This document shows, piece by piece, positions 4,783 to 16,715 of a DNA stretch of 32,255 nucleotides (position 1 is the first letter of the stretch; the number at the start of each line of letters is the position of its first letter). Made by a program: the position numbers and the translations under genes. This DNA is from Acidobacteriota bacterium (lineage in GTDB: Bacteria > Acidobacteriota > Vicinamibacteria > Vicinamibacterales > UBA2999). Location: NCBI GenBank assembly GCA_009694735.1, contig SHUG01000021.1, forward strand, positions 1 through 32,255, in the 5' to 3' direction. The notes under the pieces are model-generated. The model worked only from the letters and a program-made list of their open reading frames with translations. It made no database searches and was not told the DNA's origin.

Positions 4783-5715
4783 ATGAAGTTCGCGATTCTG
4801 GGTTCGGGCGCGGTAGGGGGCTATTTCGGCGCCAAGTTGGCGCGCGCCGGGCAGGACGTCACGTTCATCGCGCGCGGCGCCCATCTCGAGGCCATTCGCG
4901 CGAATGGCCTCGTCGTGACGAGCCCGAAGCTGGGGGACTTCCTCGTTCGGGCCGCGGCCGAAAGCGACACCGCCACGGTCGGTCCGGTGGACGTGGTGAT
5001 TGTCTCGGTGAAGGCCTACGACAACGCGACCGCGCTGCCGATGCTCACGCCGATGATTGGCCCGGATACGGTGGTGCTGACTCTCCAGAACGGCGTCGAC
5101 AGCGTGGACGAAGTGGCGGCCGTGGTGGGTGAGGCGCAGGTGCTGGGCGGCACGACTTACGTGGCGACGGCCCTCGAGGGCCCGGGGCTGATCGTCCAGA
5201 CCGGTGTGCACCGGTCGATCATCTTCGGCGAGGTGTTCGGCGACCACCGCCAGGTGTCGCCGCGCGTCCAGGTGATTGCCGACATCTTCGCCACCGCCGA
5301 CATCCAGGTGACCGCGGTCGCCGACGCGCGCGTGCCGATTTGGGACAAGTTCGTTTATCTCGTCGCCTTCTCGGGATTCACCGGCGCGTCGCGGCTGGCG
5401 ATTGGCCACCTCTGGAAATTCCCGCACGTCCAGGAGATGTTCTACGCGACGTCACGTGAGATCGCGGCGATTGCGCAGGCCGAAGGCGTGGCGATCTCGG
5501 TCGATCGCTTCGCCACGCTGAAGGACTACATGGACAACATCCCGCCCACCACGCGCTCGTCGCTGCTGATCGATCTCCAGCAGGGCAAGCGTATCGAGGT
5601 GGAGGCACTGCAAGGCGCGGCGGTCCGCCGGGCGCGGAAACTGGGCGTGCCGGTTCCCATCACCGCGACCCTCTACGCCGTGCTCAAGGCGTGGGAGGGC
5701 GGTCCGGTGAAGTGA
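4783..5715 (+). CDS. panE: 2-dehydropantoate 2-reductase (ketopantoate reductase)
   Basis: The predicted enzyme reduces 2-dehydropantoate to pantoate with NADPH in the cytosol, a step of pantothenate and CoA synthesis. The Rossmann motif GSGAVGGYFGAKLA is at residues 7-20, followed by FIARGAH. The conserved lysine-containing VSVKAYDN comes next, then LTLQNGVDS, the active-site lysine segment WDKFVY and the C-terminal SSLLIDLQQGKRIEVEALQG block with the substrate-binding Glu. The 310-residue length is normal. GGAGG lies 5 nt before ATG 4783. The family also contains many reductases of unproven substrate, so strict PanE specificity is likely but not certain. No other pantothenate gene is nearby. 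Confidence 0.88.
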   Translation: MKFAILGSGAVGGYFGAKLARAGQDVTFIARGAHLEAIRANGLVVTSPKLGDFLVRAAAESDTATVGPVDVVIVSVKAYDNATALPMLTPMIGPDTVVLTLQNGVDSVDEVAAVVGEAQVLGGTTYVATALEGPGLIVQTGVHRSIIFGEVFGDHRQVSPRVQVIADIFATADIQVTAVADARVPIWDKFVYLVAFSGFTGASRLAIGHLWKFPHVQEMFYATSREIAAIAQAEGVAISVDRFATLKDYMDNIPPTTRSSLLIDLQQGKRIEVEALQGAAVRRARKLGVPVPITATLYAVLKAWEGGPVK

Positions 5716-5720
5716 ATGCG

Positions 5721-5745
5721 TCACACGGAAGCACGGAAACAGGGA
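5721..5745. repeat. Left copy of an inverted repeat flanking the GxxExxY gene
   Basis: CACGGAAGCACGGAAACAGG lies just downstream of panE. Its core CACGGAAACA (5732-5741) recurs inverted at 6163-6172 (TGTTTCCGTG), on the other side of the GxxExxY gene. Confidence 0.7.
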
Positions 5746-5777
5746 AGAACGCAGGATTCGGTCGATGAGCCCCCGCT

Positions 5778-6158
5778 TCAGAGAACCACACGCCTTATGC
5801 CCTCATTGGCCATCGACGTTACGTTGAAGTTCAGCAGCAGTCCGACCCGCAGATGCGTGACGCGCAAGTAGGTCAAGACCTGCTTGATAAAGACCGGTTC
5901 GATTCGGCTCACTGACTTGATCTCGACGACGACGGATTGCTCGACGACAAAATCCGGCCGGTGCCAGCCGACAATCGCGCCGCGAAACTCGACCGGAATT
6001 GGCTGCTCGCGAACGAACTGCAGTTGGGTGGCCGTCATCTCCAGTTCCAATGCCGCTTGCTACGAGTACTCGGTCAACCCCGGCCCAAGGGCGCGATGAA
6101 CAGCGACTGCCGAGCGCAGGATCCGGTCGGTAAGTTCTTCGTGAATTAGAAGTGTCAC
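5778..6158 (-). pseudogene. GxxExxY protein (PD-(D/E)XK fold), interrupted by an amber codon
   Basis: Read from GTG 6158-6156 the frame gives a typical-length (126-residue) GxxExxY-family protein: VTLLIHEELTDRILRSAVAV, then GPGLTEYS, a TAG at 6062-6060, then QAALELEM and the rest. The TAG falls exactly where the family has the final Tyr of its GxxExxY motif, so a single TAC/TAT-to-TAG change explains it. The C-terminal part keeps a PD-(D/E)XK-like core: RPDFVV, then VVVEIKSV. A TTG (6050) or ATG (6038) downstream could restart a 90- or 86-residue product with the core but without the N-terminal helix. The GTG overlaps the methylase stop as GTGA. The biological role of the family is not settled. 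Confidence 0.82.
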
Positions 6159-9100
6159 ACTGTGTTTCCGTGTTTCTGCGATTCCGTGCGAAGCATGTAC
6201 TGGTCACAACAGCAGCGTCGTAGCCCGTCGGGGAGCAGTGGAAACGTCTCGACGACGTGTTGGTAATGTTCGGGCGTCAGCTGGTAGAGCCTCGCCACGA
6301 TTGCGTTCAGGCGCGCATAGCCGTCTGGAGCAGATTCGATCCCCGTCTTAGCGAGCCCCCTGGCTAGCGCGGCCAGCTCACAAAACGCGGCTGAACCATC
6401 TGGCGGCCTCGGTACCGGCAGGCGGGTCATCAGCGCAGTGGTGACGTGCGTGGTGACGTTGAGCCGCACGAGGTAATTCGCGACCAGGCTGTTGAGCAGC
6501 GCCAGCAGGCACCACTGGGCGTCGGGAGCGAGCGCCGTCTTCAGCACAAACACGGTGTGCGTCGAGAGCGTTCCCTTGGGTAGTAGCCCCGCGATCAGCG
6601 TGAGCCGGTTGGTGGCGCTGGCGACGTCGCGGTAGGCAATGCGATCGCGGGCGAAGCTCGTCGAGGGGTCGATCAACCGCGTTGCCGTCTCTCGCAGAAC
6701 GGCGTGCGTGGTGCCGGCCAGCGACACTTGAAACGGCGCCAGGTGCTTGCCCTCGACAATAGGCAACATCGAGGTCTTGCGGTCTTGCGGTCTTGAGGAC
6801 TTACGACCTGTGTGGCGTGCCGATCGCTCGACGAAGTGCGCACGATCGTCCGTGGCGTTCAGCTCGCGGCCGAATCGCGCGTACCACCCGTGGACGGCGC
6901 CGAGCGGCGGCGCGGCGGCCGACGCCGAGGTCAGAATGGCGAGCGCGGTGGGCGAGGTCAAGGTCGGCACGCTGAGCTGTTCCGGATCCCAGGCTTGCAG
7001 TCGCGAGCGGGACACGCTGAGCCACTCATCACCCTTGTCCTGGCGCGCGTCACTGGCGCAGCGGTCGAGGGCGGCGGGATCCTGGAGACCCGAACGAAAT
7101 CTCAAGACGTCGGTATGGCCTGCGTTGGTGGCCGCGATCAGGACAAAGCGCACGCTGCGGTGAATCGGGAAGATGCCGGCCTTGTTGTCGAGGCCGATCC
7201 AGGTGTCAAGGTCGCAGCGGTCGAACCACCGGCGCCGCAACGCCGCGCTGCCGTGATCGGTGCCAATGCCCGACGGAAGAATGAGCCCGAAACGGCCGCC
7301 CGGTCGCGTGAGCTGGAGAGCCCGCTCGGCAAACAACTGGTAGCGATTGGCATGACCCTGCCCCTGGGCGGTGTAGATTCCGGATGACCGGAAGAAGCGG
7401 CGCAGCGGCGTCGCCCGTTCGCGATCGGCGGCGCGAACAGCAGCCGCACCGGCATCGGCGCGCAACATGTCCCATGGCGGGTTGCCAAGCACCGCGTCGA
7501 AGCCGCCGTCGGGCCGCCGCTGACCGAGCGCGTCAAAAAACACCTCGGGGAACGCCAGCTCCCAATGAATCACCGCGTGGCTCGACGCGACCGCGGCGGC
7601 CTTCGCCAGCCACCGCGCCAGCTGCTCCGCGGGCAACGTGGTCGCGCCGCCAAGCAGCGACGCGATCCATTCGTTGACGACCGCGTGCGATGGCGCCGCG
7701 CCCGGCCACAGCGCGGCCGCACACCACGCGTCGGTCGCACGCGACCAGTTGGCGAATGGACCGTTGGGCGCCGAGAGCCGCTCGAGCCTGCGTTCCTTGT
7801 CGCGCACCGCCTGCAAGGTATCGGACGGCTCGATGGCCAGGCGCAGCCGATCGGGTAGCACGTGGGCCGCCACGACCGCCGACACCTCCGCATCGAAGAG
7901 TGGCAGCGCGGCGTGATTGATCGCACGGCCACGCACCGGCGGCTTCGCCAGGTCGGCGAGCCATCCGCCGATCAGGCTGTTGCCGACGGCCAGGTGATGG
8001 TCGAGAAAGGTCAGCGGCTTGCCGGCGGCCAACGTAGTCAACCACAGCGACAGCCGCGCCAGCTGCACGGCCGTCGGATTCAGGTCGACACCGTACAAGC
8101 ACTGCTCGGCCACCTGGCGGCGAAGGCCCGCGCGGTCGGCTGGTGTCACGCCGTGCGCGTCCCACTGGCCGTCGCGGACCAGCGCCAGCTCGCACTGGTC
8201 CGCCAGGTAGTGGCAGGCGGCAACCAGGAAGGCGCCGCTGCCCATGGCGGGGTCCACCACGCGAAGGGCGAGCAGATCGCCGATCGGCCGATCCACCACC
8301 AGCGGATGCAGCGTGCGCCGCACCAGGAACTCGGTGATCGATCGCGGCGTGTAAAAGCTGCCGGTGGCCTTACGCTCGGTTGATGTTCGCCGCAGCATGA
8401 CACCGCCGCGGGTAACCACTGGTTCGTGTTCGAGCACGCGCTCGTAGACGGCGCCGAGCTGTTCCACACCGAGGTCGTGGTACGCAATCCGCCGTCGCCC
8501 AGCTGGTGTGTCGGTGGTGGCCAGCGCCAGCACGAGGGCCTTGACGACGTCTTCGGGAACGCGGCGCCGCTCGACCAACGGGGCATGTCGCGGCGAGAAG
8601 AGTCGCCCGTTGAACGCGGTGACGTCGAGGTCGCCGGCCTTGCAGCCGGCATGAGCCATGCGGGCAATTGCCTGCATGGCCGCCCATAGGCCGCGGGGCA
8701 CTCGCGGTTCGACCGACCGCTGATAGAGCGCGTCAATGCTGTAGGCCTCGCGATAAACGGGATGCCACACGGGCACCAGCCCGCGCGCTTCAGCGAACAG
8801 CAGGAAGAGCACGCGGTAGACGACGGTGAGCGCCTGGTCGTAGGGCTGCGCACCGGGCGCCGCGCCAGGCGAAAGCGCGCCGGCCAGCGCCGGCAAGGCC
8901 GCCAACACGCCGTCGCCCAGGGATTGGCACACGCGCGCGCCATGCAGATTCGAAGCATCGACGCGCGATCGCAGGGTATTCGGGCCCGCGCGGTTGCAGG
9001 TGGCGTGCGCACCGGCCAGCGCCCACAACAGCCGCGAGCCGTGCGGATGAGAGAGCAGCGTCGCGAAGTCGAACTGCAGCGTGTGCCGCGTCCACGGCCG

Positions 9101-9532
9101 GCCGCAATCGACCACGTGCAGGCTGCGACCGTTGGTCACCAGTGCCCACGCCGCCTCGGCGCCGACGCCGCCGCGAATGGCCTCGCGCCAGGCGGCCGCC
9201 ACCGGCGCCGCCCACGGCAGCGTGACCATGAGCGCCGGTGGCGTTTCCCCACCGTGGCATAGACCTGCCAGCAGGTCGCCGACCGGGCGAACCATCGACA
9301 CCGCATACCCCAGGGCGTCGAGCAGTGGCGCGGTCGCCACATCGAGCACTTGTCGGGCGCTGGCCGCGGGCCCAATCGACCGCGACACCGATCGCCACCA
9401 CCGAACGGCCTGCCGCTCGAACCCGACAGTGGCGGCCGGGTCCAGGCCCGGCAGCAGCTGCTGCTCGAGGTACGCATGCGAAACCAACTGTCCGCCAATG
9501 CCGGCAATCACGGCGTGAGAGGGAGCGGCCAC
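6155..9532 (-). CDS. Eco57I-like N6-adenine DNA methyltransferase
   Basis: This 1125-residue protein is built like type IIG/BREX/DISARM-type large methylases. GSFYTP (391-396) precedes the core, motif I DPAMGSGAF is at 427-435 for SAM, GVDLNP at 481-486 and catalytic motif IV NPPW at 684-687. HWELAFPEVF (656-665) is typical of the group. Residues about 750-1110 should contain target recognition. The N-terminal 170 residues end in WALVTNGRS (129-137), a landmark that in type IIG enzymes follows the nuclease ExK, but here I see no D...ExK, so the protein is probably modification-only. GTG 9532 lies inside the helicase gene (25-bp overlap), which argues for coupled translation. The last residues (SQKHGNTV) are encoded by a dispersed repeat. 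Specificity is unknown. Confidence 0.85.
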   Translation of the reverse strand: MAAPSHAVIAGIGGQLVSHAYLEQQLLPGLDPAATVGFERQAVRWWRSVSRSIGPAASARQVLDVATAPLLDALGYAVSMVRPVGDLLAGLCHGGETPPALMVTLPWAAPVAAAWREAIRGGVGAEAAWALVTNGRSLHVVDCGRPWTRHTLQFDFATLLSHPHGSRLLWALAGAHATCNRAGPNTLRSRVDASNLHGARVCQSLGDGVLAALPALAGALSPGAAPGAQPYDQALTVVYRVLFLLFAEARGLVPVWHPVYREAYSIDALYQRSVEPRVPRGLWAAMQAIARMAHAGCKAGDLDVTAFNGRLFSPRHAPLVERRRVPEDVVKALVLALATTDTPAGRRRIAYHDLGVEQLGAVYERVLEHEPVVTRGGVMLRRTSTERKATGSFYTPRSITEFLVRRTLHPLVVDRPIGDLLALRVVDPAMGSGAFLVAACHYLADQCELALVRDGQWDAHGVTPADRAGLRRQVAEQCLYGVDLNPTAVQLARLSLWLTTLAAGKPLTFLDHHLAVGNSLIGGWLADLAKPPVRGRAINHAALPLFDAEVSAVVAAHVLPDRLRLAIEPSDTLQAVRDKERRLERLSAPNGPFANWSRATDAWCAAALWPGAAPSHAVVNEWIASLLGGATTLPAEQLARWLAKAAAVASSHAVIHWELAFPEVFFDALGQRRPDGGFDAVLGNPPWDMLRADAGAAAVRAADRERATPLRRFFRSSGIYTAQGQGHANRYQLFAERALQLTRPGGRFGLILPSGIGTDHGSAALRRRWFDRCDLDTWIGLDNKAGIFPIHRSVRFVLIAATNAGHTDVLRFRSGLQDPAALDRCASDARQDKGDEWLSVSRSRLQAWDPEQLSVPTLTSPTALAILTSASAAAPPLGAVHGWYARFGRELNATDDRAHFVERSARHTGRKSSRPQDRKTSMLPIVEGKHLAPFQVSLAGTTHAVLRETATRLIDPSTSFARDRIAYRDVASATNRLTLIAGLLPKGTLSTHTVFVLKTALAPDAQWCLLALLNSLVANYLVRLNVTTHVTTALMTRLPVPRPPDGSAAFCELAALARGLAKTGIESAPDGYARLNAIVARLYQLTPEHYQHVVETFPLLPDGLRRCCCDQYMLRTESQKHGNTV
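6159..6186. repeat. Right copy of the inverted repeat flanking the GxxExxY gene
   Basis: TGTTTCCGTG (6163-6172) is the reverse complement of 5732-5741, and the flanks are also similar. It overlaps the 3' end of the methylase and supplies its last codons. Confidence 0.7.
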
Positions 9533-11826
9533 AAGGCAACCAGCCGCGAGTGAACGGGTTGCGGATCGATACCGCTCAACGAGGCGGCGCGTCTTGCCAG
9601 CGCCGCGTCAAGCTGGGCGGCGACTTCGCGCCGTGCACCGGCGGAGCGTTCGGCGCGCCGGTCGAACAGCGAGGACTGGTGCATCACCGGCTCCGACGCC
9701 AGCCGTGTCCTGGCAGCGGCGATTCGCGCCAGCACCGCCCGGCGCAACGGCGGCGACAACGCTTTCGGGTTGCCGGTCGTCTCGGTGTTGCCCATCGCGA
9801 TGACGACCTCGCGCCACGCGGCGGTCATGTGCATGCCGTGGAGGGCCACGGTGCGCGCAACCACCCGGCGTTCGATCAACCGGCCGCCCGGTCCCCACTG
9901 CGTGCGCTCGAAAAGCGCGACGGCGGCGCAGTCTCCCTGGCGAGCGTGTCGAGGTATTGCGAAGATCGGGTGGGCGGGGACCGCGCCGGCGTGACGACTT
10001 AACTGTCGATGGCTGGTGACGCGCGCCAACTCATCAGCCACGCCGTGCATGCGTGTGGTGGCGATGGGCGTGACCGCCCGCGGCGGCCGCGCCACATCGT
10101 CGAAGACGGCGCGCGCAGTGTCGAGCGTGTTGGCATCCTGTTCGGCCAGTGCCTGCTCGGCATAGTGGCGCCGCCGCTCGAGATGGTTCCAGACCCGGTC
10201 CTCCACCGTGCCGCGGTGCACCAGGTGCACCGCGTGCACCCGGCGCCGTTGTCCAATCCGGTCGACGCGGCCGATCCGTTGCTCGAGACGAAGCGGATTC
10301 CACGGCAGCTCGAGATCGATCACCAGGCGGCAGCGCCGATGGAGGTTCAGGCCTTCGCCGGCGGTGTCGGTGGCGATCAGCACATCGAGCTCGCCACGAT
10401 CGAATTGCCGCAGAACCTCCTGGCGCATGGGTGCGGGGACGCCGCCGTGAATGGCACCCAGTCGGAACGTTGACGCCAGAAAATCTGCCGCGGCCTGGAG
10501 CGTGTCGCGATACTCCGTGAACACCACCGCGGGCTCGCCGGCCCGTTTCAGGAACCGCCGTAGTCTCGATAGCTTCGACGAGTGCCCCGCCGCGCGGTGC
10601 GCCAGGTCGATCAGCTGGTCGAGGCACCGTCGCTCCCCCGCCTCGTCTGACAGGCCCGGTCGGGCCAGCCGCTCATCCAGTTCGTCGCCATCGTCGTCAT
10701 CGCCGTCTTCCCAAGGGAGCGAGCCCTGGACGGGCACCGGCGGCGGTGCCCCCGCGAGCAGCGCCCGGCGTCTTGCCAGTGTCAGGGCGACCGCCGCCGC
10801 GCTCGAGGCGGCCCGACGCGCGAGCGTGATCGCCACCAGTTGCACCGCGTGATCCGATTGCCCGCGCGCCTGCCAGATGTCGCGCGCGTAGTCGTCCGTG
10901 GCGCGCAGCAGCCGCGCCTCGTCGTGGGTCGCGGTGACACTCATCAGGCGAGCGCGGCGATCGTCCCGAAGGCCGATGTCAAACCGGCCCCGTCGAAAAA
11001 TCACCAGCGGGTCGCCGAGTGACCCAATGGCAGTGAGGTAGGCAAAGGCGGCCCGATCGCCCGAATGCGGCGTGGCCGACGCCAGTACTATCCACGGTGC
11101 TCGTGAGGCGAGGCGACTGACGGCGTGGCCGCGGTCGCTGGCTGGGGTCAGGTGGTGCGCCTCATCAGCGATCACCAGGTCGAACGGCACTTCCTCAACG
11201 GCGGCGATCACTTCCGGACGCTTGACGAGATCGATCGACGCAATGACGACGGGATGGGCGGCCCACGGATTGACGCCGGCCGGCAGGTCCTGGAGATTCA
11301 TGGCGAGCGAGGTGTGATCGAGCACGGCCGCCACGATCCCGAATCGATCGCGTAACTCGGTGGCCCAGGATTCGCGCAGTCCGGCGGGACAAAGAATCAG
11401 CGCGCGATCGAGCAGGCTGCGTGCCCGAAGCTCGGCGAGAATCAGGCCGGCCTGAATGGTCTTGCCCAGCCCCACGCCGTCGGCCAGCAGCACTCGGGTG
11501 GCACCGTGCAGCACCGCCAGCGCAGGTTCCAGTTGATAGGCGAACAGGTCCAGCGTGGCATCCGCGGCGGTCCACAGACCGAGGGCTGGCCGTTCCCGGG
11601 CGATGGCGGCAAGGGCGCCGCGCAGGACGGTGCGTCGCTTGCGCCGCCGGGGTTGCGTCGACTGAGACGCGGTGACGCGATCGAAGGGCGTGACGGCGTG
11701 AAAACGACGGCCGTGGTTGTCGGGTCCGCAGCCCTCGAGCGTCAACACCGTGCAGCGCTCGAACACTTCCGTGCGCGCGACCGTCCAGCACTCGTCGCGC
11801 ACCCTCACCATTTCACCGGGTCGCAT
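9508..11826 (-). CDS. SNF2/HepA-type helicase-like ATPase paired with the methylase
   Basis: This is a superfamily-2 DNA translocase of the SNF2/RapA type. The motifs are in order: motif I DGVGLGKTIQAG (116-127), Ia ILCPAGLRESW, II DEAH (221-224), III LASATPHSG (248-256), a charged linker (370-400), then the C-lobe with VVFTEYRD, V IATDTAGEGLNLH (484-496) and VI QRIGRVDRIGQRR (516-528). The C-terminal 200 residues match nothing I know. At 772 residues it is shorter than the DrmD helicase of DISARM, its closest known analogue by partner type. Start ATG 11826 has no clear ribosome site; ATG 11811 is an alternative. It overlaps the downstream methylase by 25 bp, so the two are almost certainly expressed together. 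A role in restriction of foreign DNA is inference from the pairing. Confidence 0.85.
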   Translation of the reverse strand: MRPGEMVRVRDECWTVARTEVFERCTVLTLEGCGPDNHGRRFHAVTPFDRVTASQSTQPRRRKRRTVLRGALAAIARERPALGLWTAADATLDLFAYQLEPALAVLHGATRVLLADGVGLGKTIQAGLILAELRARSLLDRALILCPAGLRESWATELRDRFGIVAAVLDHTSLAMNLQDLPAGVNPWAAHPVVIASIDLVKRPEVIAAVEEVPFDLVIADEAHHLTPASDRGHAVSRLASRAPWIVLASATPHSGDRAAFAYLTAIGSLGDPLVIFRRGRFDIGLRDDRRARLMSVTATHDEARLLRATDDYARDIWQARGQSDHAVQLVAITLARRAASSAAAVALTLARRRALLAGAPPPVPVQGSLPWEDGDDDDGDELDERLARPGLSDEAGERRCLDQLIDLAHRAAGHSSKLSRLRRFLKRAGEPAVVFTEYRDTLQAAADFLASTFRLGAIHGGVPAPMRQEVLRQFDRGELDVLIATDTAGEGLNLHRRCRLVIDLELPWNPLRLEQRIGRVDRIGQRRRVHAVHLVHRGTVEDRVWNHLERRRHYAEQALAEQDANTLDTARAVFDDVARPPRAVTPIATTRMHGVADELARVTSHRQLSRHAGAVPAHPIFAIPRHARQGDCAAVALFERTQWGPGGRLIERRVVARTVALHGMHMTAAWREVVIAMGNTETTGNPKALSPPLRRAVLARIAAARTRLASEPVMHQSSLFDRRAERSAGARREVAAQLDAALARRAASLSGIDPQPVHSRLVALWPLPLTP

Positions 11827-15919: not shown

Positions 15920-15947
15920 CAAGTCCCAAGCCCCAAGTCTCAAGCCT
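15920..15947. repeat. Four heptamers (CAAGYCY) at the queF 3' end
   Basis: The units are CAAGTCC, CAAGCCC, CAAGTCT and CAAGCCT in tandem. The last unit provides the final codon and part of the stop of queF. Same family as 1921-1962. Confidence 0.8.
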
Positions 15948-16290
15948 TCGTGTACTCCGCCGTCACCTTCGTGGTGATCCCGCCGCGCGCGGTAAAGTCG
16001 CCGACCACGGTCATCTGCCGTGGGGCGCAGGCAGCCACCAGGTCGTCCAGAATCTGGTTGGTGGCGGCCTCGTAGAAAATTCCCTTGTTCCTGAACTCCA
16101 GCAGATAGTATTTGAGGGACTTGAGCTCGAGGCAGTGGGCGTCGGGCAGGTAGCGGATGCGGATGACGCCGAAGTCGGGGAGGCCCGTCTTCGGGCACAT
16201 CGACGTAAACTCTGGGCAGTCGATCGCGATTTCGAAGCGGCGTTCGGGCCGCGGGTTGGGAAACGTCTCGATCGTCGACGCGGTAGACAT
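15940..16290 (-). CDS. queF: preQ1 synthase (NADPH-dependent 7-cyano-7-deazaguanine reductase)
   Basis: The enzyme reduces preQ0 to preQ1 in the queuosine tRNA-modification pathway. It is the short, single-domain type (116 residues). The active-site Cys is C32 in FTSMCPKTGLPDFG, the substrate region is LELKSLKYYLLEFRN, and FYEAATNQIL with DFTARGGITT follow as in the family. No other queuosine gene lies nearby. TAGACT sits 7 nt before ATG 16290, suggesting a leaderless transcript. The stop codon overlaps a heptamer repeat array. Confidence 0.93.
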   Translation of the reverse strand: MSTASTIETFPNPRPERRFEIAIDCPEFTSMCPKTGLPDFGVIRIRYLPDAHCLELKSLKYYLLEFRNKGIFYEAATNQILDDLVAACAPRQMTVVGDFTARGGITTKVTAEYTKA

Positions 16291-16377: not shown

Positions 16378-16409
16378 ACACGCCGTCAACATTGACCCTG
16401 GGGGACACG

Positions 16410-16715
16410 ATGGACGAAGCCCGGAGAATGGGCAAGTCGGAACTCTTTTCGCACTTCGCTGAACGGTTCGACGTCAAGCGTACGCAGTCGCGCGAATTCT
16501 TCGACGAACTGGCGATCCTGTGCGAGAAGGAATTAAAGCGAACCGGAGAGTTCGTGATCCCCGGCATGGTGAAGCTCGTCGTGCAGCACCGCAAGGCCCG
16601 GACCGGACGCAATCCGGCCACCGGCCAGCCGATCGAGATCGCGCCCAAGACCGTGGTCAAGGCGCGCATCGTCAAGCAGCTGAAAGACGCGATCCTGCCC
16701 AAGAAGCCGAAGTAA
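16410..16715 (+). CDS. HU/IHF-family DNA-binding protein
   Basis: The 101-residue protein has the HU layout: N-terminal helices (GKSELFSHFAERF), a helix-turn with FFDELAILCEKELKRTGEF, the strand IPGMVKLVVQHRKARTGRNP and the DNA-arm signature GRNPATGQPIEIAPKTVVKARIVKQLKDAIL. HU proteins bend and compact DNA. The N-terminal segment is about ten residues longer than in standard HU, as in divergent HU-like proteins. ATG 16410 is chosen because GGGGGA lies 5 nt upstream and the next in-frame codon upstream is a TTG without a better site. It has its own strong promoter and converges with the NtrC-type gene. Confidence 0.87.
   Translation: MDEARRMGKSELFSHFAERFDVKRTQSREFFDELAILCEKELKRTGEFVIPGMVKLVVQHRKARTGRNPATGQPIEIAPKTVVKARIVKQLKDAILPKKPK

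What the first reader, a model, noticed from the sequence alone, without database searches (positions are those of the whole stretch)
5778..11826. Compact SNF2 helicase + N6-adenine methylase + PD-(D/E)XK-like gene cluster
Three genes on one strand overlap in turn: helicase/methylase by 25 bp, methylase/GxxExxY by GTGA. Motifs for an SNF2-type ATPase, a large adenine methylase and a PD-(D/E)XK-like protein are visible. The helicase/methylase pairing recalls DISARM (drmD and drmMI), but drmA, drmB and drmC are absent, and it is not BREX (no pglZ or brxC). It may be a minimal modification-restriction system or a decayed one. GxxExxY genes are scattered in many genomes, so the third member could be a chance neighbour.
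Basis: partly seen in the sequence, partly recalled or inferred. Interest (0 to 1): 0.75.

Follow-up and report, generated by a model that had tools for sequence, protein, structure and literature searches.

The report
Inherited helicase-methylase pair, dead third gene
A DNA-tracking motor and a DNA-marking enzyme, related to parts of phage-defence systems, have stayed together at one chromosomal address across a soil-bacterial order, while the small nuclease gene attached behind them comes and goes and is broken by a stop codon in this genome.

Summary
The helicase (9508-11826) and methylase (6155-9532) are intact, overlap by 25 bp and keep their catalytic motifs. The third gene is a pseudogene: an in-frame TAG (6062-6060) replaces the tyrosine of its own GxxExxY motif. 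The pair is not DISARM or BREX: DrmB is missing from 26 of 28 pair-bearing genomes and lies elsewhere in the other two; PglZ is above cut-off in only two, far from the pair. It is a compact DrmD/DrmMI-like pair of Vicinamibacterales (Acidobacteriota): the helicase clade is in 98 of 162 genomes, and helicase and methylase adjoin in all 79 loci with room. In several families the locus is HU-QueF-(Smr)-[pair]-PanE, and some pair-less genomes keep remnants there. The methylase's N-terminal PD-(D/E)XK-like domain lacks catalytic residues in every member, and its target-recognition region drifts with the core instead of being swapped. Best reading: a resident, nuclease-free methylation-plus-translocase module. 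GxxExxY is not a chance neighbour (15 of 81 loci, always directly 3' of the methylase), but it is dispensable. GxxExxY genes sit between inverted arrays of an 8-nt unit that also occur alone as ~100-bp hairpin units, a REPIN/RAYT-like arrangement I did not find described. Function is untested.

The parts
9508..11826 (-). SNF2-type (DrmD/BrxH/RapA-like) helicase/translocase, 772 aa
   Evidence: Walker A (residues 116-123), DEAH (221-224), motif III (SATPHSG), motif V (ATDTAGEGLN) and motif VI (EQRIGRVDRIGQ) conserved across 21-23 homologues
6155..9532 (-). DrmMI/type-IIG-like N6-adenine DNA methyltransferase, 1125 aa
   Evidence: AlphaFold2 model mean pLDDT 85; Foldseek best matches BrxX/PglX, CamA, type IIG/IIL enzymes
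9053..9370 (-). N-terminal PD-(D/E)XK-type fold of the methylase (residues 55-160) without catalytic D and E-x-K
   Evidence: Predicted alpha-beta-beta-beta-alpha-beta-beta order; catalytic residues absent in all aligned family members and in the more distant helicase-coupled relatives
8225..8257 (-). methyltransferase motif I, VDPAMGSGAFL
   Evidence: near-invariant in A1
7472..7483 (-). methyltransferase motif IV, NPPW
   Evidence: invariant in A1
6533..7132 (-). target-recognition region (residues 801-1000)
   Evidence: as conserved as neighbouring regions; tracks the catalytic core, no swapped blocks seen
5778..6158 (-). GxxExxY (PDDEXK_3, TIGR04256) pseudogene; GTG start overlaps the methylase stop
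6060..6062 (-). in-frame TAG in place of the invariant Tyr of the GxxExxY motif
   Evidence: Tyr34 invariant in A3
6155..6188 (-). 5' arm: array of an 8-nt unit (CAC[AG]GA[AG]N), also encodes the methylase's last ten or so residues and stop
   Evidence: 0.23 matches expected in the window, 5 found; pairs with the 3' arm
5724..5749 (+). 3' arm: inverted copy of the same 8-nt array
15940..16290 (-). QueF-like gene, anchor of the conserved neighbourhood (named from its sequence motifs, not from a profile hit)
   Evidence: Synteny in 44 loci; found in 12 of 13 genomes chosen for lacking the pair
16392..16715 (+). HU-like DNA-binding protein, anchor of the neighbourhood (named from its sequence)
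   Evidence: Synteny in 39 loci
4783..5715 (+). PanE/ApbA ketopantoate reductase, downstream neighbour in many loci

Best explanation
The locus is a resident, vertically inherited helicase-methylase pair of Vicinamibacterales. Its methylase puts N6-methyladenine on what is probably one fixed sequence motif, and its SNF2-type motor tracks along DNA. No working nuclease belongs to the conserved unit: the methylase's own nuclease fold is catalytically dead throughout the family, and the GxxExxY gene is dispensable and dead here. It most likely works like the methylation-plus-translocase half of BREX or class-1 DISARM: methylated host DNA is tolerated, and the motor loads on and obstructs DNA that lacks the mark, without cutting it. 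Shown: intact motifs, coupling, synteny, co-divergence with neighbours, purifying selection, dead nuclease fold, loss of the third gene. Inferred: the enzymatic activities, the methylated base and motif, and that unmarked DNA is the target.
For: Helicase and methylase adjoin in all 79 loci with room, and their distances correlate at r = 0.88. The helicase clade (E below 1e-100) is in 98 of 162 genomes of the order, in most of its families. Fixed locus HU-QueF-(Smr)-pair-PanE in several families; methylase remnants at that site in G213 and G391, a helicase remnant in G014, and a clean absence in G301 of the same genus. Methylase distances correlate with QueF (0.74), Smr (0.76) and PanE (0.62) distances. 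Synonymous divergence is like that of the neighbours (dS 0.79-1.08 against 0.65-0.98), with dN/dS 0.20-0.32. Catalytic residues near-invariant. E-x-K absent in all aligned members. Target-recognition region tracks the core (for example mean 0.40 at core identity 0.55-0.60, n = 95), whereas other helicase-coupled methylases decouple (L067/L061 core 0.66, TRD 0.31; L211/L065 core 0.54, TRD 0.53). Closest solved folds are BrxX/PglX. Related helicase-methylase pairs lie in defence-like or mobile settings, beside brxL, DruE- and MkoA-like genes or IS elements.
Against: Vertical inheritance at a housekeeping locus and an apparently fixed specificity are unusual for a defence system and fit a host epigenetic role as well. 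About 40% of genomes lack the pair. dN/dS is two to three times that of housekeeping neighbours. The TRD control has only seven proteins. No expression, methylation or phage data exist, and the 86%-complete MAG cannot exclude partner genes elsewhere.
Confidence: 0.5

Rival explanations
1. Host epigenetic or genome-maintenance module: a solitary, CcrM/CamA-like fixed-specificity methylase with a chromatin-remodeller-like motor that acts on the cell's own chromosome (expression, replication or repair), not on invaders.
For: Vertical inheritance, fixed locus beside HU and QueF, co-divergence with neighbours, no TRD swapping, no nuclease; CamA is among the closest solved folds; no plasmid record covers 80% of the methylase and only five phage records match it at all.
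Against: Relatives outside the order lie in defence-like, mobile contexts; the pair is lost repeatedly; faster protein evolution than housekeeping neighbours.
Confidence: 0.33
2. True three-gene restriction system: GxxExxY is the nuclease fired by the helicase on unmethylated DNA; this genome carries a restriction-dead, modification-only relic.
For: 15 of 81 loci carry GxxExxY exactly 3' of the methylase, with overlapping or nearly overlapping reading frames; linked copies cluster in the GxxExxY tree (2 changes against 11.7 for shuffled labels) and one origin is not rejected (AU p = 0.44); active-site D, E-x-K and Q invariant; lambda-exonuclease/Cas4-like fold; dN/dS 0.10 between window and L033 copies, so selected until recently.
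Against: About 80% of pairs lack it; at least 11 gains or losses on the methylase tree; copies degraded in the window, L033 (start), L078, L091 and L111; GxxExxY genes elsewhere are equally stable at unrelated addresses, so persistence here does not prove partnership.
Confidence: 0.12
3. Residue of a class-1 DISARM island that lost drmA, drmB and drmC.
For: Best named matches are DrmD and DrmMI.
Against: No drmB genome-wide in 26 of 28 carriers, and on another contig in the other two; scores far below the NCBIfam DrmD cut-off; the compact pair is itself conserved and selected across the order, so it is a stable form and not a recent relic.
Confidence: 0.05

Closest known systems
Class-1 DISARM (DrmD helicase + DrmMI methylase)
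   Same: SNF2-type helicase beside a large adenine methylase; best PADLOC and NCBIfam matches
   Different: No DrmB in 26 of 28 carriers and none at the locus; shorter proteins (772 against about 1040 aa, 1125 against about 1350 aa for the best models); resident chromosomal locus
BREX (PglX/BrxX methylase, BrxH helicase)
   Same: Closest solved folds of the methylase are BrxX/PglX; helicase matches BrxHI/BrxHII; a plasmid relative sits beside brxL
   Different: PglZ above cut-off in only 2 of 28 carriers, far from the pair
Type IIG restriction-modification enzymes (Eco57I, MmeI, DrdV, BpuSI)
   Same: Nuclease-fold, helical, methylase and TRD order in one chain
   Different: N-terminal nuclease active site missing in the whole family; separate helicase gene
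Solitary epigenetic adenine methylases (CcrM, CamA)
   Same: Vertically kept, apparently fixed specificity, no nuclease; CamA is a close fold match
   Different: Paired with a motor gene; much larger protein
REPIN-RAYT systems (for the GxxExxY unit)
   Same: A gene flanked by inverted short-repeat arms, miniature gene-free hairpin units dispersed in the genome, positionally stable copies
   Different: The protein is a PD-(D/E)XK-type nuclease fold, not a tyrosine (HUH) transposase; mobility not shown

Membership tests
DISARM | DrmB (DUF1998) with DrmA as core | tested here: not met
   NF038324 (DrmB_fam) absent in 26 of 28 carriers including this genome; in G285 and G088 it lies on a different contig. 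DrmA was not searched by itself because its models hit any SNF2 helicase; none seen in the neighbour survey
[quoted passage not shown]
   DrmMI 2.1e-99 by PADLOC; no NCBIfam equivalog match
DISARM | DrmD-type helicase (class 1) | tested here: inconclusive
   PADLOC 7e-76, but NCBIfam DrmD 278 bits against a cut-off of 610
BREX | PglZ | tested here: not met
   No PF08665 match in this genome; two of 28 carriers have one above cut-off, far from the pair
Type IIG restriction-modification | active PD-(D/E)XK nuclease domain fused to methylase | tested here: not met
   Fold predicted, catalytic E-x-K absent in all members
N6-adenine DNA methylases (type IIG/Eco57I group) | SAM motif I and NPPY/W motif IV | tested here: met
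   DPAMGSGAFL and NPPW invariant or nearly so
SNF2/SF2 helicases | Walker A, DExH, motifs III, V, VI | tested here: met
GxxExxY (TIGR04256 / PF13366) | intact GxxExxY motif and open frame | tested here: not met
   TAG at the motif tyrosine; relatives intact
Functional anti-phage defence | protection against phage | not testable with these tools
   needs experiment
REPIN-RAYT-like element (GxxExxY unit) | inverted short-repeat doublets dispersed in the genome and flanking the gene | tested here: met
REPIN-RAYT | RAYT tyrosine transposase; evidence of replication of the repeats | tested here: not met
   GxxExxY has a lambda-exonuclease/Cas4-type fold, no HUH match; repeat mobility not tested

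The most novel reading that the evidence does not exclude
GxxExxY (PDDEXK_3) is the resident nuclease of a REPIN-like repeat family: its genes lie between inverted arrays of an 8-nt unit whose two arms match each other copy by copy, gene-free hairpin versions are scattered in the same genomes, and the nuclease processes or spreads these hairpins. The copy parked behind the methylase is one of several long-lived addresses. If so, this is a RAYT/REPIN-like partnership built on a PD-(D/E)XK nuclease.
Probability: 0.35. Interest if true: 0.8.

Novelty: new variant of a known kind. Interest (0 to 1): 0.58.

Why it matters
Helicase-methylase pairs are usually read as pieces of mobile defence islands. 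Here the pair is inherited with the chromosome across an order, with a dead nuclease fold and an apparently fixed target region, so it offers a clean test of whether methylation plus a DNA motor, without any nuclease, is enough for exclusion or has become an epigenetic system. Separately, the widespread and unexplained GxxExxY family gains a concrete lead: co-varying inverted repeat arms and gene-free hairpin relatives.

Tried and rejected
Smr as the conserved nuclease partner: it lies between QueF and the helicase in 28 loci, but stays with QueF in pair-less genomes (L063, L194, L196, L208) and is absent from this window, so it belongs to the QueF neighbourhood. PF09369 (MZB/DUF1998) as a DrmB proxy: hits a ~820-aa YprA-like helicase in almost every genome; replaced by NF038324. 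'L120 lacks the helicase': false, a profile finds an 890-aa helicase. In-frame TGAs in six helicases of family f6: not recoding and not a pseudogene sign; in four of the five examined the C-terminal part is a second overlapping ORF. L067 as a DISARM outgroup: its helicase is a DpdE-model match in a mixed defence island. A dead nuclease fold as specific to this clade: no, the more distant helicase-coupled methylases also lack E-x-K. GxxExxY as ordinary plasmid cargo: only 8 of 72,556 plasmids match. One query with wrong coordinates failed.

Full report
OBSERVATION. The coordinates are right. The helicase ORF is 9508-11826 and the methylase ORF 6155-9532, both on the minus strand, overlapping by 25 bp. 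The third reading frame is a GxxExxY/PDDEXK_3 protein (TIGR04256, 6.6e-34 when read with X at the stop), but it is not a gene any more: a TAG at 6062-6060 interrupts it. The stop sits on the tyrosine of the motif that names the family; that tyrosine, with the glycine and glutamate, D70, E80-x-K82 and Q94, is invariant in 42 aligned homologues. The sister genome G355 has a tyrosine there but seems to have lost the normal start. A sequencing error in the MAG cannot be excluded without reads.

WHAT THE TWO LARGE GENES ARE. The helicase has all SF2/SNF2 motifs and is nearest DrmD, BrxH and RapA among named families. The methylase has motif I DPAMGSGAFL and motif IV NPPW, and an Eco57I/N6_Mtase profile. 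Its AlphaFold2 model (mean pLDDT 85, 26 sequences) is closest to BrxX/PglX, then CamA, M.BseCI and type IIG/IIL enzymes. The model's first folded domain has the alpha-beta-beta-beta-alpha-beta-beta order of a PD-(D/E)XK nuclease, but no member of the family has the E-x-K pair there, and neither do the more distant helicase-coupled methylases I could compare. So this protein is not a type IIG restriction enzyme.

DISTRIBUTION. A search of 396 genomes of the phylum gave near-full-length relatives only within the order, with a sharp drop outside it (E below 1e-150 inside, 1e-63 at best outside). All 80 best loci of an 84,980-species collection form the same group; contigs titled Luteitalea, Vicinamibacteraceae and Vicinamibacterales place it in Vicinamibacterales, Acidobacteriota (a few record titles such as Bifidobacterium or Acidimicrobiia look like mislabelled MAGs). 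The helicase clade (E below 1e-100) is present in 98 of 162 genomes of the order (counted). Helicase and methylase adjoin in all 79 non-redundant loci with room upstream (77 by tblastn, one split match, one by profile). No plasmid record covers 80% of the methylase, and only five phage records match any of it.

A FIXED ADDRESS. The pair lies between HU-QueF-(Smr) and PanE or other constant neighbours in many loci of several families. Genomes without the pair show the same neighbours: a clean absence in G301 of the same genus, methylase C-terminal remnants beside the QueF locus in G213 and G391, and a helicase remnant beside QueF in G014. Methylase distances follow helicase (r = 0.88, n = 62), QueF (0.74, n = 40), Smr (0.76) and PanE (0.62) distances; HU gave no significant correlation (0.19, p = 0.08). 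Between window, G355 and G107 the synonymous divergence of the pair (0.79-1.08) is like that of neighbours (0.65-0.98), and dN/dS is 0.20-0.32 against 0.07-0.19. The simplest account is presence in an ancestor of much of the order, vertical inheritance with purifying selection, and repeated loss.

TARGET RECOGNITION. If this were a restriction-type system under pressure to change specificity, the target-recognition region should be swapped between relatives. It is not: across 26 family members its identity falls smoothly with that of the catalytic core, while seven helicase-coupled methylases from other contexts show decoupling in both directions. The control is small, so this supports but does not prove a fixed motif.

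THE THIRD GENE. In 1.54 Mb around the pair, GxxExxY occurs in 15 of the 81 loci with downstream sequence, always on the methylase strand and starting within about 100 bp of the methylase end, and nowhere else, against a background of roughly one copy per genome. The linked copies cluster in the GxxExxY tree (2 changes against 11.7 with shuffled labels), one origin is not rejected (AU p = 0.44), and on the methylase tree they fall in three subclades with at least 11 gains or losses. Several are degraded (window, L033, L078, L091, L111), and some GxxExxY-free relatives keep arm sequence at the site (L143, L070, L083). So it is an old but dispensable companion, under selection until recently here (dN/dS 0.10 between the window and L033 copies). 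Persistence at one site does not prove partnership: other GxxExxY genes of the order are equally stable at unrelated addresses with conserved flanks on both sides.

ARMS. Nearly every linked GxxExxY gene, and many unlinked ones, lies between inverted arrays of an 8-nt unit, CAC[AG]GA[AG]N and variants. The two arms of one copy match each other far better than arms of other copies: mean score 24.5 against 13.8 in the order (n = 41) and 19.9 against 13.2 in other Acidobacteriota (n = 23), with no permutation of 20,000 as high in either. The arms also occur alone: at one mismatch a 22-nt pattern gives 19 sites in this genome, 29 in G355, 36 in G167, 22 in G285, 17 in G213 and none in G107 and G301, with the reversed pattern giving none except three in G285. 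Several are inverted doublets about 100-130 bp long, always in the same facing order; one folds as single-stranded DNA at -33.3 kcal/mol, z = -8.1. GxxExxY itself is predicted (pLDDT 95) to have a lambda-exonuclease/Cas4-like nuclease fold, with modest Foldseek scores (E 3e-3 at best). The arrangement recalls REPINs, inverted REP doublets that form hairpins and are associated with RAYT transposases (PMC3116915), but with a different enzyme. Searches of the open-access library for GxxExxY, PDDEXK_3 and PF13366 returned three papers in all; the one GxxExxY passage I read (PMC8934634) and the titles of the others do not suggest that this has been described.

MEMBERSHIP. DISARM needs DrmA-DrmB (PMC9142583): DrmB is absent from 26 of 28 carriers and on another contig in two. 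BREX needs PglZ: not in this genome, above cut-off in two of 28 carriers and far from the pair. So it works like, but is not, these systems.

MECHANISM AND LIMITS. I commit to a nuclease-free methylation-plus-translocase barrier at 0.5; a host epigenetic role is the serious rival at about one third. Catalysis, base, motif and target are inferred; the genome is an 86%-complete MAG; gene calling in related loci was by simple ORF scoring; correlations and counts are not corrected for shared ancestry beyond the tree-based tests.

Noticed in passing
G000 contigs C3, C6, C19, C51 and others (L239 1395-1540 as example); also G355, G167, G285, G213: Dispersed ~100-130-bp palindromic units made of inverted 8-nt arrays, the same as the arms of GxxExxY genes; absent from the close relatives G107 and G301.
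   Followed up: partly
L198, L200, L201, L203 (genomes G410, G424, G408, G420, family f6): The helicase is split into a 614-652-aa core ORF and an overlapping 208-280-aa C-terminal ORF in another frame (L199 shows the same first stop, its second part was not found). Split gene or programmed frameshift; several genera share it.
   Followed up: partly
L210 (Allomeiothermus silvanus plasmid pMESIL01) 3992-17787: brxL, helicase, 1338-aa methylase, large DEAD/DEAH helicase and exonuclease in a row: a larger arrangement around the same kind of helicase-methylase pair.
   Followed up: no
L067: A related helicase-methylase pair inside an island with DruE-like, NERD/UvrD-like and MkoA-like proteins; PADLOC calls the helicase DpdE with 892 bits although no Dpd context was seen.
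   Followed up: no
L150/L155/L157/L158/L163 and L148/L149/L152/L168: Two other GxxExxY addresses with conserved flanking genes on both sides across genera: GxxExxY genes are positionally stable.
   Followed up: partly
L071, L099, L113, L115, L125, L145, L146: Contigs titled Cyanobacteria, Bifidobacterium breve, Acidimicrobiia or Gemmatimonadaceae carry this order's locus: record titles of these MAGs look wrong.
   Followed up: no
G050:C72, 34683 and 56832: Matches of identical score to a type-IIG-like methylase occur twice, 22.1 kb apart, suggesting a recent segmental duplication or an assembly artefact.
   Followed up: no
G000:C161:3786-4115 (L001): The only other GxxExxY gene found in this genome is open but of a divergent type and without recognisable arms.
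   Followed up: partly
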